40,532 nucleotides of DNA from an uncultured Chitinophagales bacterium (GTDB lineage Bacteria; Bacteroidota; Bacteroidia; Chitinophagales; JAHDHT01). The DNA is taken from assembly GCA_938023075.1 (NCBI GenBank), contig CALHDG010000068.1, forward strand, positions 1 through 40,532, in the 5' to 3' direction. Of this stretch, positions 20,402 through 39,146 are shown in pieces (the first letter of the stretch is position 1; the number at the start of each line of letters is the position of its first letter). The notes under the pieces were generated by a model. The model was not told the DNA's origin, did not search any database, and saw only the letters and a program-made list of their open reading frames with translations. The position numbers and the translations under genes were made by a program.

Positions 20402-21196
20402 ATGAGATCAGTTTGGAAAGGACATATCCGGTTTTCGTTGGTAACTATACCAATACAAATTTTTAATGCCTTAGAGTACAAAGGCAATATATCATTTAAG
20501 CAACTCCATAAAGAAGATAACGGACCGGTGGGCTATGATAAGGTTTGCCGAAGTTGTAACACCAAAGTACCTAAAGAAGATATTGTAAAAGGCTATGAAT
20601 ATGAGCCCGATCAATTTGTAATTATTGCAGATGAAGATATCAATAAAATTAAATTAAAAAGTACTAAAGCTATCGATATTGAGGCTTTTGTTGACTTAGC
20701 CGAAGTGCATCCAAGCCGTTATGAAAATGTGTATTTTGTTGGTCCGAATGGAGAAGTTGCCCAAAAAACCTATAGTTTATTTTGTCAAACTTTAATAAAA
20801 AGTAAAAAAGCAGGTATTGGCAGAATTATTTTAAGAGACCGGGAAGATGTGGTGATGTTAGTACCACATAAAAATGGTTTAATTATGTACAAATTACGGT
20901 ATCCATATGAAGTAAGGAGTATTGATAAAGTACCGGATTTGCCCGAAAAACCTGAAGTAGATGAAACCCAGTTAAAGTTGGCTCAAACGTTGGTTGATTC
21001 CTTGTCCACCAAATTTGAAGAAGTGGATTTTGAAGATCGTTACCGCGATGCGATTATTGAATTGGTGAACAATAAAGTGGAAGGTAAAGAAACGGTTAGT
21101 ATGAGCGATGGAGAAGATGATACACCGGTAGTTGATATTATGAGTGCTTTAAAAGAAAGCATTGCAAAAGCGAAAAAAGAAAAAAAGAGCGCGTGA
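20402..21196 (+). CDS. ku: Non-homologous end-joining protein Ku
   Basis: A 264-residue bacterial Ku, the usual family length. The N-terminus MRSVWKGHIRFSLVTIPIQI is diagnostic, followed by ISFKQLHKEDNGPVGYDKVC and CRSCNTKVPKEDIVKGYEYE. Ku forms a ring that holds double-strand DNA ends and recruits ligase LigD. The C-terminus is Lys-rich (KESIAKAKKEKKSA), as is usual for DNA-contacting tails. No ligD lies in this window, so it must be elsewhere or absent. It ends 14 bases from the convergent histidine kinase gene. Confidence 0.95.
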   Translation: MRSVWKGHIRFSLVTIPIQIFNALEYKGNISFKQLHKEDNGPVGYDKVCRSCNTKVPKEDIVKGYEYEPDQFVIIADEDINKIKLKSTKAIDIEAFVDLAEVHPSRYENVYFVGPNGEVAQKTYSLFCQTLIKSKKAGIGRIILRDREDVVMLVPHKNGLIMYKLRYPYEVRSIDKVPDLPEKPEVDETQLKLAQTLVDSLSTKFEEVDFEDRYRDAIIELVNNKVEGKETVSMSDGEDDTPVVDIMSALKESIAKAKKEKKSA

Positions 21197-33926: not shown

Positions 33927-34907
33927 ATGGATAAATCAAACATATATTTATTCTCCCTAATTTTTTTGGTCGTTTTATTTTTATTTGGAGCCCATTACTT
34001 ACGCTATCAACAAAATATTGTACTAGAAAAAGATGGCTACCAAATCATTAAAATCGATAAGTCTCAAACTATCTTACCACATAAAGAACCCATCGTATTT
34101 ATCATTGAAACAGAATCAAATGAGAAAGAGATATACAAATTTAATGGCTATGAACATGAAGATTTTAGTGTAACAAATTTATACTATTATAAACCGAAAC
34201 AATCCAACCTTGATAATGACTTTTATTTTATAGAGGGTTTTAAAAATAATCTTCCATTCGATAAAAAATTAGAAGATCTTTCATTTGAGCAACTATACGA
34301 TATTGTTAATTCGGGTAAACATTTTGAATCGCGTCAGTTAATTCAACATAATTTAGAACCTGGTATTTTTGGATATATTGACACCATGCCTTTAATCTTT
34401 ATGGCTCTTGGATTTGTTGCACTCATCATTCTAAAAGTAGTCGACGTAATAAAGTTTTTGCTCAATAAAGTTTTCAAAAACAAAAAAGCTGAAGTTATAC
34501 TTACAATGCTGTTATTGATATTTTTTATATTTTTATTAACTAATATTCGTTTAGCTCCATGGTATCCGACAAGCAAAATTGCCTTATTCATTCGTAATAT
34601 GATTGTTATTATTCCAATTTTTATTGGTCTGCGAGTAGTTAAAAATCGTTTTTTCAAAACAGATAAATTTTGGAAGAATCAGTTCATAAATTTTATAATC
34701 ATTTTTTTGTGCGGCTACCTACTGCTATGCTTAGGTAACCATATTGCTTTTTTAATCGATAAATCAAATTTTGCTAAAATATCACATAAACCTTTTTTTT
34801 GCACTCACGATAGCTTGGCTATTGGTTTTTTAATGGCATTTGCAATTGGTTTAATACTCAACAATTTGATTAATGAATTGATTGTAGTGCGTAGCATAAC
34901 TGAATAG
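33927..34907 (+). CDS. Hypothetical membrane protein
   Basis: A 326-residue protein that I do not recognise. Helix 1 is at residues ~5-22. A ~125-residue polar region follows, rich in Lys, Asn, Tyr and Phe, probably extracytoplasmic. Five more helices follow at about 145-175, 188-208, 216-238, 254-280 and 292-318. No family motif is visible. It begins 40 bases after the MltF-like gene, with a small GTCAT/ATGAC hairpin (33894-33908) between them, and may be co-transcribed. Codon use is like its neighbours. Confidence 0.65.
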   Translation: MDKSNIYLFSLIFLVVLFLFGAHYLRYQQNIVLEKDGYQIIKIDKSQTILPHKEPIVFIIETESNEKEIYKFNGYEHEDFSVTNLYYYKPKQSNLDNDFYFIEGFKNNLPFDKKLEDLSFEQLYDIVNSGKHFESRQLIQHNLEPGIFGYIDTMPLIFMALGFVALIILKVVDVIKFLLNKVFKNKKAEVILTMLLLIFFIFLLTNIRLAPWYPTSKIALFIRNMIVIIPIFIGLRVVKNRFFKTDKFWKNQFINFIIIFLCGYLLLCLGNHIAFLIDKSNFAKISHKPFFCTHDSLAIGFLMAFAIGLILNNLINELIVVRSITE

Positions 34908-35028
34908 GAATTATATGAAATAGGTATTAGCAAACTCATCTGTTTAAAATATTCATAGCCAAACTTGTCTTTTCTACCAAAGGGCAACCGCAGTTGTTAT
35001 ACGATTACCATAGCTTTTTAGTGTGACA

Positions 35029-35043
35029 CTTTGATATACAAAG
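35029..35043. promoter_or_regulatory. Candidate operator of the XRE regulator
   Basis: The dyad CTTTG-ATATA-CAAAG lies 57 bases before the start of the XRE gene. Controller-type regulators of restriction-modification operons bind such short palindromes. This site is unproven. The surrounding 192-bp gap also has a weak TAAAATTG (35064-35071). Confidence 0.35.
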
Positions 35044-35099
35044 AATCGTTTGTAAGTTTGCTATAAAATTGGCAAGATAAAATATTGCAAGACGTATAA

Positions 35100-35423
35100 A
35101 TGACAACTTTTGGCGAATTTATTAGAGATGAAAGAAACAAAAAGGGTCTAAATCAAAGCGATTTTGGACAACCTTTTGGTATTATTATGACGGACATTAG
35201 CAAAATTGAAAATGGTCGTAAAAGGTTTCCCTTTGATAAATTGAAGCAACTTGCAGCATATCTTGACAAAAATTACACCGAACTGAAAGATTTGTATGTG
35301 GCTGAAAAACTGGTTATAGAGGCTCATAAATACAAATGTACAGATACCGTTTTTGCGGTTGCCAAAAATCAATCAAAATACCTAAAGAGTAAACTTGTAA
35401 AACAAGCCAAACTAAAATTCTAA
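35100..35423 (+). CDS. XRE-family transcriptional regulator of the restriction-modification unit
   Basis: A 107-residue protein. Residues 4-60 form an HTH_3 domain: FGEFIRDERNKKGLNQSDFG, then TDISKIENGRKRFPFDKLKQLAAYLD. The C-terminal ~45 residues are Lys-rich (NQSKYLKSKLVKQAKLKF), perhaps a dimer or DNA-contact tail. Its stop codon lies three bases before the first ATG of the large R-M-S gene, so the two are a tight operon. It most likely represses or times expression of the nuclease gene, a role known for controller proteins but inferred here. Confidence 0.9.
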   Translation: MTTFGEFIRDERNKKGLNQSDFGQPFGIIMTDISKIENGRKRFPFDKLKQLAAYLDKNYTELKDLYVAEKLVIEAHKYKCTDTVFAVAKNQSKYLKSKLVKQAKLKF

Positions 35424-35426
35424 TTG

Positions 35427-38400
35427 ATGATGAAACAAAAGGAATTCATACAACAATTAGGCTTTACACCTAAAGAAAACACGCAAGACATATTTCAACA
35501 GAAATATAACAACTACGCTATTGAGATTAATATTAAAAACGAAACTTTTAACTTTGGTGATAGCATAAAAGCAGATAGCAAATCAACTCAAAATTTTTCA
35601 CAACCAGAAAATTGGGTAGTTCTTGAATGTGTGGACCGCTTACTCAAAAAAGGGTATCAACCAGAAAGCATTACACTGGAAAAAACATGGAAAACAGGAC
35701 ACGGAACAAGCGGCAGATTAGATATATTGATTAGCAGAAACGATGGTTCCGCTTATATGATGATTGAGTGTAAAACTTGGGGAAAAGAGTATGATAAAGA
35801 ATTAAAAAATCTTCATAAAAATGGCGGACAATTATTTACCTACTTTCAACAAGATAAAGCAGCTGATGTTTTAATGCTCTACAGCTCTCAACTAAACAAA
35901 ACAACAGTTGAGTATAAAAATGAAATTGTAACAATTGAAGAAGATTATCGGCAAACAGCAAACGTAAAAGATTTCTTCGACCGGTGGAGCAAACTTCCAA
36001 AATCAAATGGCGTTTTTGATAATTGGACAACTCCTTATGAATTTCAAAGCAAGGCCTTAACCAAAAACGACCTTAAAGTGCTAAAACAGGAGGATAGCAG
36101 CTTTATCTTTAATCGGTTTTTAGAGATATTAAGACACCATGTTGTTTCTGATAAACCCAACGCCTTTAATAAAATTTTCACACTTTTTTTATGCAAAATA
36201 ATTGATGAAGATAGAGGTAATGACGAGCAACTTCATTTTCAATGGCTCGAAGGGGAAGACAATCATATCTCTTTTCAAAAAAGACTGACCGACCTTTATA
36301 GAAGGGGAATGAAAGAACTACTTGAAAAAAAAGTTACCGATGTTAGTGATGATGAATTTGATAAGCGTTTTCAACAAGTACAAGAGAACTATCGAGATGA
36401 AATAAAAGACATTCTTACCGAAATACGCCTTAAAAAGAACAATGAATTTGCCATTAAGGAAGTGTTTGATGACGATTCTTTTTTAGAAAATGCCAAAGTG
36501 GTTAAAGAGGTAGTTGAGCTTCTCCAATATTATCAATTGCGTTACAATTACCGCCAGCAATTTCTTAGTGATTTCTTTGAACTTCTCTTAACCACAGGTC
36601 TAAAACAAGAATCGGGGCAGTTTTTCACACCGGTACCAATAGCTCGCTTTATCATTAGAAGTTTACCACTTAATGAAATTACTGAACGAAAAATAAAAGA
36701 GGGTAACCAAAAAGATTTATTGCCGAATATTATTGACTATGCTGCTGGAAGTGGACATTTTCTAACCGAATCCATGGAGGAGGTGCAAAAATATGTTGAT
36801 GAACTTGACCTTAGCAAATTTAAACCACAAACCAAGAAACAATTAGATGGTTTTCAAAGAGTACAGTTTGATTGGGCGGAAGACTATGTTTACGGAGTTG
36901 AAAAAGATTACCGATTAGTAAAAACGGCGAAGGTGAGTTGCTACTTACACGGTGACGGCTTAGCCAAAGTAATTCATGGAGATGGTTTGGATGACTTTGC
37001 CACTTCAACAGATTTTAAAGACCTTTTAAAAGAAACCGACAAAACATATCCGCAAGATAACAAACAGTTTGATGTTGTCATTTCTAATCCGCCATATTCT
37101 GTTTCTGCATTTAAAGGGCAAATGGATAGCCAAAAATCGGAAAAGGCATTTAACCTGTTTAAAAAGCTAACCGACCAAAGTAGCGAAATTGAATGCCTTT
37201 TTGTAGAACGAACCAAGCAGTTGTTAAAAGATGGAGGCATTGCAGGTATCATTTTACCGAGTTCAATATTAAGCAATACTGGAATATATTCACAAACAAG
37301 AGCAATTCTTTTACAATATTTTGAAATAATTGCCATTACCGAATTGGGTTCTAATACTTTTATGGCAACCGGCACCAATACGGTTGTACTGTTTTTAAAA
37401 CGTAGAAATAATGCAACCGCTAAAAATGTACAAGCTGCAGTTAAAAACTTTTTTACCCATTTACAAAATGTAACCATAAACGGAATTGAAAAACCGGTTT
37501 CCAAATATTTGGCTCAGGTTTGGAACAATATTACGATAGAAGATTACCAAACGCTGTTGCAAAAATTGCCCAATAATAATATTACGCAACACGAAATTTT
37601 TAAAGAATATACCAAAAAACTAAAAGCTAAAAGTGAACCACAACTTTGGGATAAAATTATAAGTATAGAACAAGAAAAACTGTTTTACTTTATTTTGGCT
37701 TATCCTCAAAAATTGGTATTGGTAAAAACTGGGAAAAAGACAGATGAAAAACGGTTTTTGGGTTACGAGTTTAGTTTCCGTAGAGGAAGCGAAGGCATAC
37801 ACCCCATTCAGCGAAGCAAAACCATTGATGAATGCACCAAACTGTACGATGCTAATAGCTATGAGCATTCTGAAAAAGCAAGCACTTATATCTATAAAGC
37901 ATTTAATGGTGAGTTTAATTTGAACATACCGGAAAGTCTAACACAAAATATAAGCTATCAAAACTTAGTAGATATGCTCACTTTTGACCGTGTTGATTTT
38001 GAAAAGAATATCTCACTTTCGGCTAAAAAAAAAGTGAGGTATGAGGAAGTTTGGGGTACTTCAGATTTATCACTTTTAAGTGAGCATACAATAATTAAGA
38101 AAGGCAGCACAATTACAGAATCTAAAACTGTAAAAGGAAACATTCCTGTTGTTGCTGGAGGTAAAAAGCCTGCCTATTTTCATAACCAATCAAACAGAAA
38201 AGGAAATGTAATTACCGTTAGTGCTTCGGGAGCATACTCGGGCTTTGTCAACTACTTTTCTAAACCAATTTTTGCTTCGGATTGTAATACTATCGTTTCA
38301 TTAAATGAAAAAGCAATATCAACTAAATTGATTTACCATTTTTTAAAACCAATTCAACAAGTTATTTATAGGTTACAGAGAGGACAAGCTCAACCACACG

Positions 38401-39146
38401 TTTATGCAGATGATTTAGCTAATATTAAAATTCCTCTCCCACCAATTAACATCCAACAAAAAATAGTTGATGAAATTGAAAAGTTAGAAAAACAAGCGCA
38501 AAAGGCAGTTGAAGGGATAGATAAGTTGAAGGAAGAAATTGCTAAGTTAATACAACACCCAAATGGAGACTTGGTAAAGTTAGCAGAAATCACCTCTAAA
38601 ATTGGAAGTGGTGCAACTCCAAGAGGTGGCAAAGGTTCTTACCAAGAAAGTGGTATTACACTTATAAGAAGCCAAAATATTTACGATTACGGTTTTGCAA
38701 AAAAAGGACTTGCCTTTATTAATGAAGAACAAGCCAAAAAACTTAATAATGTTACCGTTGAACAAAATGACATTCTGTTTAATATTACGGGTGCTTCAAT
38801 AGCCAGATGTTGTATTGTTGAAGAAAAATACTTGCCCGCTCGAGTAAATCAACACGTTTCAATAATCAGAACAAATGAAAAGGCACTACCAAAATATGTT
38901 CAATTAATTTTAGTTAGTCAAGCATATAAAGATAAATTATTAGCTATTGGCGAAGGCGCAACTTCACGTCAAGCAATTACGAAATTACAGTTAGAAGAAT
39001 TTAAAATTCCTCTCCCGCCCCTCTCAAATCAGAAAAAACTCGTTAGCGAAATCGAAAAAATTGAACATCAAATAGCCCAATTAGAGCATCAAATAGCTAA
39101 CATTCCAAAACAAAAAGAAACCATTTTGAAAAAGTATTTGGAATAG
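35427..39146 (+). CDS. Single-chain restriction-modification-specificity enzyme (type IIB/IIG, AloI/CjeI-like)
   Basis: A ~1239-residue fusion. The N-terminal PD-(D/E)XK nuclease shows Asp99 (GRLDILIS), Glu114 and Lys116 (MMIECKTWG). A helical linker of ~250 residues leads to an N6-adenine methyltransferase: motif I DYAAGSGHFLTE (Asp437), motif IV NPPY (Asn554). After ~870 comes a type I-like specificity part with two target-recognition domains (~886-1010 and ~1050-1190), each closed by a coiled coil with IPLPPI..QQKIV and IPLPPLSNQKKLV. This order and length match AloI-type enzymes, which cut on both sides of a bipartite site and methylate it. No separate hsdR or hsdS is nearby. ATG at 35427 and 35430 are both possible starts. 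The recognition sequence cannot be read. Confidence 0.9.
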   Translation: MMKQKEFIQQLGFTPKENTQDIFQQKYNNYAIEINIKNETFNFGDSIKADSKSTQNFSQPENWVVLECVDRLLKKGYQPESITLEKTWKTGHGTSGRLDILISRNDGSAYMMIECKTWGKEYDKELKNLHKNGGQLFTYFQQDKAADVLMLYSSQLNKTTVEYKNEIVTIEEDYRQTANVKDFFDRWSKLPKSNGVFDNWTTPYEFQSKALTKNDLKVLKQEDSSFIFNRFLEILRHHVVSDKPNAFNKIFTLFLCKIIDEDRGNDEQLHFQWLEGEDNHISFQKRLTDLYRRGMKELLEKKVTDVSDDEFDKRFQQVQENYRDEIKDILTEIRLKKNNEFAIKEVFDDDSFLENAKVVKEVVELLQYYQLRYNYRQQFLSDFFELLLTTGLKQESGQFFTPVPIARFIIRSLPLNEITERKIKEGNQKDLLPNIIDYAAGSGHFLTESMEEVQKYVDELDLSKFKPQTKKQLDGFQRVQFDWAEDYVYGVEKDYRLVKTAKVSCYLHGDGLAKVIHGDGLDDFATSTDFKDLLKETDKTYPQDNKQFDVVISNPPYSVSAFKGQMDSQKSEKAFNLFKKLTDQSSEIECLFVERTKQLLKDGGIAGIILPSSILSNTGIYSQTRAILLQYFEIIAITELGSNTFMATGTNTVVLFLKRRNNATAKNVQAAVKNFFTHLQNVTINGIEKPVSKYLAQVWNNITIEDYQTLLQKLPNNNITQHEIFKEYTKKLKAKSEPQLWDKIISIEQEKLFYFILAYPQKLVLVKTGKKTDEKRFLGYEFSFRRGSEGIHPIQRSKTIDECTKLYDANSYEHSEKASTYIYKAFNGEFNLNIPESLTQNISYQNLVDMLTFDRVDFEKNISLSAKKKVRYEEVWGTSDLSLLSEHTIIKKGSTITESKTVKGNIPVVAGGKKPAYFHNQSNRKGNVITVSASGAYSGFVNYFSKPIFASDCNTIVSLNEKAISTKLIYHFLKPIQQVIYRLQRGQAQPHVYADDLANIKIPLPPINIQQKIVDEIEKLEKQAQKAVEGIDKLKEEIAKLIQHPNGDLVKLAEITSKIGSGATPRGGKGSYQESGITLIRSQNIYDYGFAKKGLAFINEEQAKKLNNVTVEQNDILFNITGASIARCCIVEEKYLPARVNQHVSIIRTNEKALPKYVQLILVSQAYKDKLLAIGEGATSRQAITKLQLEEFKIPLPPLSNQKKLVSEIEKIEHQIAQLEHQIANIPKQKETILKKYLE

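What the first reader, a model, noticed from the sequence alone, without database searches (positions are those of the whole stretch)
35029..39146. Compact two-gene defence unit: XRE regulator plus a single R-M-S polypeptide
Nuclease, methyltransferase and two target-recognition domains are all in one ~1240-residue chain, preceded three bases upstream by an HTH protein, with a CTTTG-N5-CAAAG dyad before it. The architecture matches AloI/CjeI-type type IIB enzymes, known to cleave on both sides of a bipartite site. A dedicated regulator for a single-chain R-M-S enzyme is the less usual part: it must delay nuclease activity although nuclease and methylase cannot be separately controlled. Both specificity halves are intact, so the unit is probably active.
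Basis: partly seen in the sequence, partly recalled or inferred. Interest (0 to 1): 0.6.

Follow-up and report, generated by a model that had tools for sequence, protein, structure and literature searches.

The report
Self-regulated single-chain restriction enzyme operon
A bacterium of the Bacteroidota carries a one-protein DNA-cutting-and-marking defence enzyme together with a small switch protein that probably turns down its own operon, and that switch belongs to a widespread, apparently undescribed family that heads many different restriction systems in this phylum.

Summary
The two genes are real and intact. The 1238-residue protein is an AloI/TstI-like single-chain R-M-S enzyme: its closest solved relative is the type IIB enzyme BsaXI, all four BsaXI catalytic residues are present, the methylase NPPY motif is intact, and there are two recognition domains. 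Cleavage on both sides of the site is inferred, not tested.

The regulator is not a curiosity of this locus. Orthologues sit 0-10 nt upstream of 17 of 46 related enzymes. By sequence alone, the same XRE family heads other Bacteroidota R-M operons (C5, N4/N6, type IIG); 29 of 30 scanned have a methylase or R-M gene next, and two members are fused to a C5 methylase. None of 46 other HTH_3 genes had such a neighbour.

The conserved operator lies nearer the gene (35053-35092), overlaps the Bacteroidota -7 promoter box, occurs once in the 6.1-Mb genome, and its arms co-vary with the regulator's recognition helix across the family. Best reading: an autorepressor that caps the whole operon, not a device that delays the nuclease. 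Known kind of enzyme; new variant of R-M control.

The parts
35030..35033 (+). putative -33 promoter box TTTG, 19 nt upstream of the -7 box
   Evidence: Sequence; same 19-nt spacing in relatives L042, L040, L021 and L010; Bacteroidota consensus from PMC7366714
   Evidence: 4 observed against 4.1 expected in shuffles; not conserved in relatives
35053..35060 (+). -7 promoter box TAAGTTTG (consensus TAnnTTTG)
   Evidence: TAnnTTTG upstream of 85 of 97 XRE-family genes against 8 in shuffles
35057..35076 (.). operator dyad TTTGCTA-N5-TTGGCAAG (imperfect, spacer 1 bp longer than in relatives)
   Evidence: Conserved block in the 8 closest relatives; only copy in the 6.1-Mb genome; arms co-vary with recognition helix
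35085..35092 (+). third half-site TTGCAAGA, direct repeat of the right arm (TTAGCAAGT in relatives)
   Evidence: Conserved position -15 to -8 before the start codon in the close relatives
35100..35423 (+). XRE/HTH_3 regulator, 107 aa, six-helix repressor fold with conserved C-terminal extension
   Evidence: orthologue in 17 of 46 related loci
35430..39146 (+). single-chain restriction-modification-specificity enzyme, 1238 aa (alternative starts 35424, 35427)
35595..35969 (+). PD-(D/E)XK nuclease core (about residues 56-180): E84, D98, E113, K115, Q134
   Evidence: Alignment to RM.BsaXI; residues invariant in relatives; catalytic set from PMC11997821
36561..37433 (+). N6-adenine methylase domain (residues 378-668), motif I DYAAGSG 436-442, motif IV NPPY 553-556
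   Evidence: PF02384; invariant motifs
38094..38492 (+). target-recognition domain 1 plus first helical conserved region (residues 889-1021)
   Evidence: PF01420 stretch; hypervariable in relatives
38571..39143 (+). target-recognition domain 2 plus second helical conserved region (about residues 1048-1238)
   Evidence: PADLOC type I S profiles 1048-1236; PF01420 second stretch; hypervariable

Best explanation
The unit is one operon of a small XRE repressor and an AloI/TstI-like single-chain restriction-modification enzyme. The enzyme finds a bipartite site with its two recognition domains, methylates adenine there on host DNA and probably cuts unmodified DNA on both sides of the site (fold, motifs and relatives shown; site, methylation and cuts inferred). 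The XRE protein binds inverted and direct half-sites (TTTGCYA / TGGCAAG / GCAAG) over the -7 promoter box and the start of transcription, and so represses its own operon (sites and co-variation shown; binding and repression inferred). In a naive cell the operon would be expressed in a burst and then settle to a low, copy-number-buffered level. This limits enzyme dosage; it cannot separate methylase from nuclease in time.
For: Enzyme: PADLOC IIG E=3e-244; RM.BsaXI E=4e-43 and best structural match Z 30 against 22.7 for the next family. BsaXI catalytic E73/D90/E105/K107 align to E84/D98/E113/K115, invariant in relatives. R+M conserved while recognition domains vary. Regulator: orthologue 0-10 nt upstream in 17 of 46 loci. 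The XRE family heads C5, N4/N6 and IIG systems, 0 of 46 other HTH_3 genes do, and L097 and L150 are XRE-C5-methylase fusions. Operator: strict dyad in 42 of 97 members against 0.16 in shuffles, TAnnTTTG in 85 against 8. Arm bases follow the recognition helix, 1.17 bits against at most 0.68 in 5000 shuffles. L068 has the same helix and operator but a different enzyme. Operator absent from all 29 loci without XRE and unique in the host genome.
Against: No expression, binding or methylome data. In this window the dyad is imperfect and its spacer is one base longer than in relatives, so binding here may be weaker. About 27 related enzymes do without the regulator, so it is not essential. Family members are related, so the co-variation test overstates independence. 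Two-sided cleavage, recognition site and subunit assembly are untested. The 880-residue model has modest confidence (pLDDT 74).
Confidence: 0.77

Rival explanations
1. Classical C protein: the XRE protein first activates, then represses, its operon, delaying the build-up of the enzyme after entry into a new cell.
For: Same fold class and position as C proteins; weak sequence similarity to C.BclI and C.AhdI and fold match Z about 7.6.
Against: Conserved sites overlap and follow the -7 box; no conserved site upstream of -33. No AGTC-type C-box core in the operators. Methylase and nuclease are one chain, so no relative delay is possible.
Confidence: 0.12
2. The XRE protein acts mainly on the enzyme itself, as an antitoxin-like or subunit partner, through its conserved C-terminal helices.
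For: Closest folds are HigA-type antitoxins; the C-terminal extension is conserved, C80, A88, Y94, K101-Q102.
Against: The same regulator family pairs with unrelated enzymes and swaps between near-identical enzymes (RM 95%, XRE 50-52%), which a specific protein partner would not tolerate. Many related enzymes lack it.
Confidence: 0.05
3. The enzyme is a one-sided type IIG cutter or a methylase with a dead nuclease rather than a type IIB enzyme.
For: Cut positions cannot be read from sequence; PADLOC files it under IIG.
Against: All four BsaXI catalytic residues invariant; two full recognition domains as in single-chain IIB enzymes (PMC11997821).
Confidence: 0.12

Closest known systems
AloI/TstI/PpiI single-chain type IIB enzymes (TstI 1251 aa, PMC4027205)
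   Same: One chain of about 1240 residues with nuclease, N6-methylase and two type I-like recognition domains in the same order
   Different: Sequences of AloI and TstI were not available here for direct comparison; an upstream XRE regulator is not mentioned in the passages read
RM.BsaXI (PDB 8w0p; type IIB)
   Same: Nuclease-helical connector-methylase layout, catalytic residues, best structural match Z 30
   Different: BsaXI has a separate S subunit and a paddle domain; the window's recognition domains are fused
Type II controller (C) proteins, e.g. C.AhdI, C.BclI
   Same: Small XRE/434-like HTH protein at the head of an R-M operon with its own operator at the promoter
   Different: No AGTC C-box; sites at and downstream of -7 only; heads methylase or whole-enzyme genes, not only the endonuclease gene; extra C-terminal helices
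HsdC of Mollicutes (PMC5282649)
   Same: C-protein homologue heading a whole R-M operon, operator overlapping the core promoter, apparent repressor, natural fusions to methylases
   Different: Different operator (GTGTTA direct repeats in mycoplasmas), different phylum and promoter type, type I and II partners
RptR of Gammaproteobacteria (PMC12255303)
   Same: Small autorepressor at the head of R-M operons, palindromes over the -10 box
   Different: Unrelated non-XRE fold, type I systems

Membership tests
Type IIB, AloI/TstI single-chain group | R, M and S functions in one chain of about 1250 residues | tested here: met
Type IIB, AloI/TstI single-chain group | PD-(D/E)XK nuclease with the residues essential in BsaXI | tested here: met
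   E84, D98, E113, K115 align to E73, D90, E105, K107 and are invariant
Type IIB, AloI/TstI single-chain group | Two recognition domains alternating with two helical conserved regions | tested here: met
   Two Methylase_S stretches and type I S profiles over 886-1041 and 1048-1236; this part was not modelled
[quoted passage not shown]
   Needs purified enzyme
Type IIB, AloI/TstI single-chain group | Homotetramer (TstI, AloI) | not testable with these tools
   Needs biochemistry
Type II R-M controller (C) proteins | Small HTH protein encoded directly upstream of and with the R-M gene | tested here: met
Type II R-M controller (C) proteins | C-box operator with AGTC core inverted repeats | tested here: not met
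   Operators are TTTGNYA-N-TRNCAA, TTTGCTA/TGGCAAG in the window
Type II R-M controller (C) proteins | Activating site upstream of the -35/-33 box | tested here: inconclusive
   No conserved element upstream of -33 in relatives; absence of conservation is not proof
HsdC-like whole-operon R-M repressors | Operator overlaps the core promoter and the gene heads the whole R-M operon | tested here: met
   comparative evidence only
HsdC-like whole-operon R-M repressors | Direct GTGTTA or AACGAAT repeats | tested here: not met
   Different half-sites; so works like HsdC but is not filed as HsdC
Type II toxin-antitoxin antitoxin (HigA/HipB/Y4mF) | Paired toxin gene next to it | tested here: not met
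   Next gene is an R-M enzyme here, and a methylase or R-M gene in 29 of 30 scanned family members; NCBIfam Y4mF below cut-off

The most novel reading that the evidence does not exclude
A phylum-wide family of plug-in autorepressors controls Bacteroidota restriction systems of all chemical classes (C5, N4/N6, IIG, single-chain IIB), each with a matched operator over the -7 box, and is swapped between enzymes as a module. The single-chain case would show that the purpose of such regulators is dosage control rather than ordering methylase before nuclease.
Probability: 0.6. Interest if true: 0.65.

Novelty: new variant of a known kind. Interest (0 to 1): 0.52.

Why it matters
C proteins are usually explained as timers that let the methylase act before the nuclease. 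A regulator on an enzyme whose two activities cannot be separated is a natural test of that idea. Here the evidence points to dosage capping instead. The recognition-helix/operator code found across the family gives predicted binding sites for many Bacteroidota R-M systems and a way to test cross-talk and mutual exclusion between them.

Tried and rejected
XRE as chance neighbour: rejected. XRE as antitoxin: no toxin neighbour found among the family members scanned. Weakest XRE matches (alignment A3) were meant as a negative control but were themselves rich in R-M genes, so a separate control of 46 unrelated HTH_3 genes was run. Phage records: no relative of the regulator. Plasmids: only distant relatives of the enzyme, best 32%. 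The Sorokin/Gelfand survey of C-protein motifs (recalled from memory) is not held, so whether this operator class was listed there could not be checked. Literature searches returned no paper on a regulator of a single-chain IIB enzyme or on this Bacteroidota family; the library is partial. AlphaFold of the full chain was not possible (limit 1200 residues), so residues 1-880 were modelled; the structure listing barely tests residues 1-242.

Full report
Observation. The window has a 107-codon HTH ORF at 35100-35423 and a 1238-codon ORF from ATG 35430 to 39146 (alternative starts 35424 TTG and 35427 ATG). Pfam finds HTH_3/HTH_19 in the first, and HSDR_N_2, N6_Mtase and two Methylase_S stretches in the second. 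The neighbours (a 326-aa protein of no known family upstream, a fatty acid hydroxylase downstream) are unrelated, so the unit is two genes.

The enzyme. PADLOC's closest model is a type IIG fusion over the first 736 residues (E=3e-244), followed by type I S profiles. The nearest solved protein by sequence is RM.BsaXI, a type IIB enzyme (E=4e-43), and BsaXI is also the best structural match of an AlphaFold model of residues 1-880 (Z 30.0 over 509-541 aligned residues, next family Z 22.7). The large rmsd there reflects domain placement in a pLDDT-74 model. The paper on BsaXI names E73, D90, E105 and K107 as catalytic and conserved in type IIB enzymes (PMC11997821). In the alignment these fall on E84, D98, E113 and K115 of the window protein, and all four are invariant in 31 aligned relatives; Q134 and NPPY 553-556 are invariant too. 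Across relatives the nuclease and methylase parts are well conserved and the recognition domains are not (means of 0.28-0.48 at 881-1000 and 1041-1200), as expected for exchangeable specificity. TstI, a single-chain type IIB enzyme, is 1251 residues (PMC4027205), and single-chain IIB enzymes have the TRD1-CR1-TRD2-CR2 tail. The enzyme is therefore filed with the AloI/TstI kind on architecture and catalytic residues; cleavage pattern, target and assembly remain untested.

The regulator is part of the system. Among 46 near relatives of the enzyme in one-per-species genomes, 17 carry an orthologous XRE gene 0-10 nt upstream. On a tree of the R+M part the regulator's presence changes about 10 times. 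Near-identical enzymes can carry regulators only half identical (L010 or L040 against L023: RM 95%, XRE 50-52%), so the regulator is exchanged as a module. One relative (L010) has a nonsense codon in its XRE gene.

A family of R-M regulators. A profile of 14 XRE proteins finds homologues in 98 of 395 class genomes. For 30 non-identical members outside the single-chain enzyme group, the gene directly downstream, or fused, is a C5 methylase (18), an N4/N6 methylase (5) or an N6 methylase/type IIG enzyme (6). The one exception (L087) is followed by a 362-aa protein of no known family, an ORF that I read by eye as a PLD-type nuclease, and then a probable DNA methylase. L097 and L150 are natural fusions of the regulator to a C5 methylase (L150 judged by length and neighbourhood, not scanned). 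As control, none of 46 other HTH_3 genes from the window's genome and four others had a relative of these enzymes downstream.

The operator. The conserved block lies at -47 to -8 before the XRE start: TAAGTTTG (35053-35060), TTTGCTA-N5-TTGGCAAG (35057-35076) and a further half-site TTGCAAGA (35085-35092). TAnnTTTG is the Bacteroidota -7 box, with TTTG near -33 (PMC7366714); TTTG at 35030-35033 lies 19 nt upstream, as in four relatives. In 97 non-identical family members, TAnnTTTG precedes the gene in 85 (shuffles 8) and a strict TTTGNYA-N3..7-TRNCAA dyad in 42 (shuffles 0.16). The variable arm bases follow the recognition helix: IIMT helices go with GCYA, DSAN helices with GTCA, DQ helices mostly with GACA (1.17 bits; maximum of 5000 shuffles 0.68; relatedness inflates this). 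L068 has the window's helix type and operator type but an N4/N6 methylase downstream, so the operator follows the regulator, not the enzyme. The operator pattern occurs once in the 6.1-Mb genome and in none of 29 enzyme loci that lack the regulator. Binding itself is inferred.

Mechanism. A repressor bound over the -7 box and the likely start of transcription excludes RNA polymerase. With no conserved site upstream of -33, activation of the classical C-protein kind is not supported. Since both activities are one protein, the regulator cannot order methylase before nuclease. It can limit the amount of enzyme after an initial burst and buffer gene copy number. HsdC of Mollicutes, which appears to repress a whole R-M operon from a promoter-overlapping operator and is also found fused to methylases (PMC5282649), is the closest precedent in mode of action; RptR (PMC12255303) is a non-homologous parallel. 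The review literature read here describes C proteins as activators and repressors of separate nuclease genes, and one paper states that gene-copy responsiveness and hysteresis in fused type IIG systems remained to be determined (PMC3695507).

Limits. No wet evidence. The window's own dyad is imperfect, with a spacer one base longer than in relatives. REBASE and the older C-protein motif survey were not available, so the family may already be listed there as putative C proteins.

Noticed in passing
L097:1495-3009 and L150: Natural fusion of the XRE regulator to a C5 DNA methylase in one ORF (L097, 505 aa); L150 is a similar 502-aa ORF that was not scanned.
   Followed up: partly
L010:2678-2998: The XRE gene carries a nonsense codon while the 1243-aa enzyme downstream is intact.
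   Followed up: no
L019, L023, L030, L034, L038, L041, L043, L045: Related enzymes are split or truncated, several after the first recognition domain; L023 has separate RM (884 aa) and S-like ORFs.
   Followed up: partly
L151:556-4433 (also L148): XRE-family operon in which an undescribed 362-aa protein and an ORF resembling a PLD-type nuclease precede the methylase; the 362-aa family has no Pfam or PADLOC match.
   Followed up: partly
window 20402-21196: ORF that reads like a bacterial Ku (end-joining) protein; not searched against a library.
   Followed up: no
window genome G000, contig C30, about 34143-36141: Weak matches to the enzyme's methylase and recognition parts, probably a separate type I-like R-M locus.
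   Followed up: no
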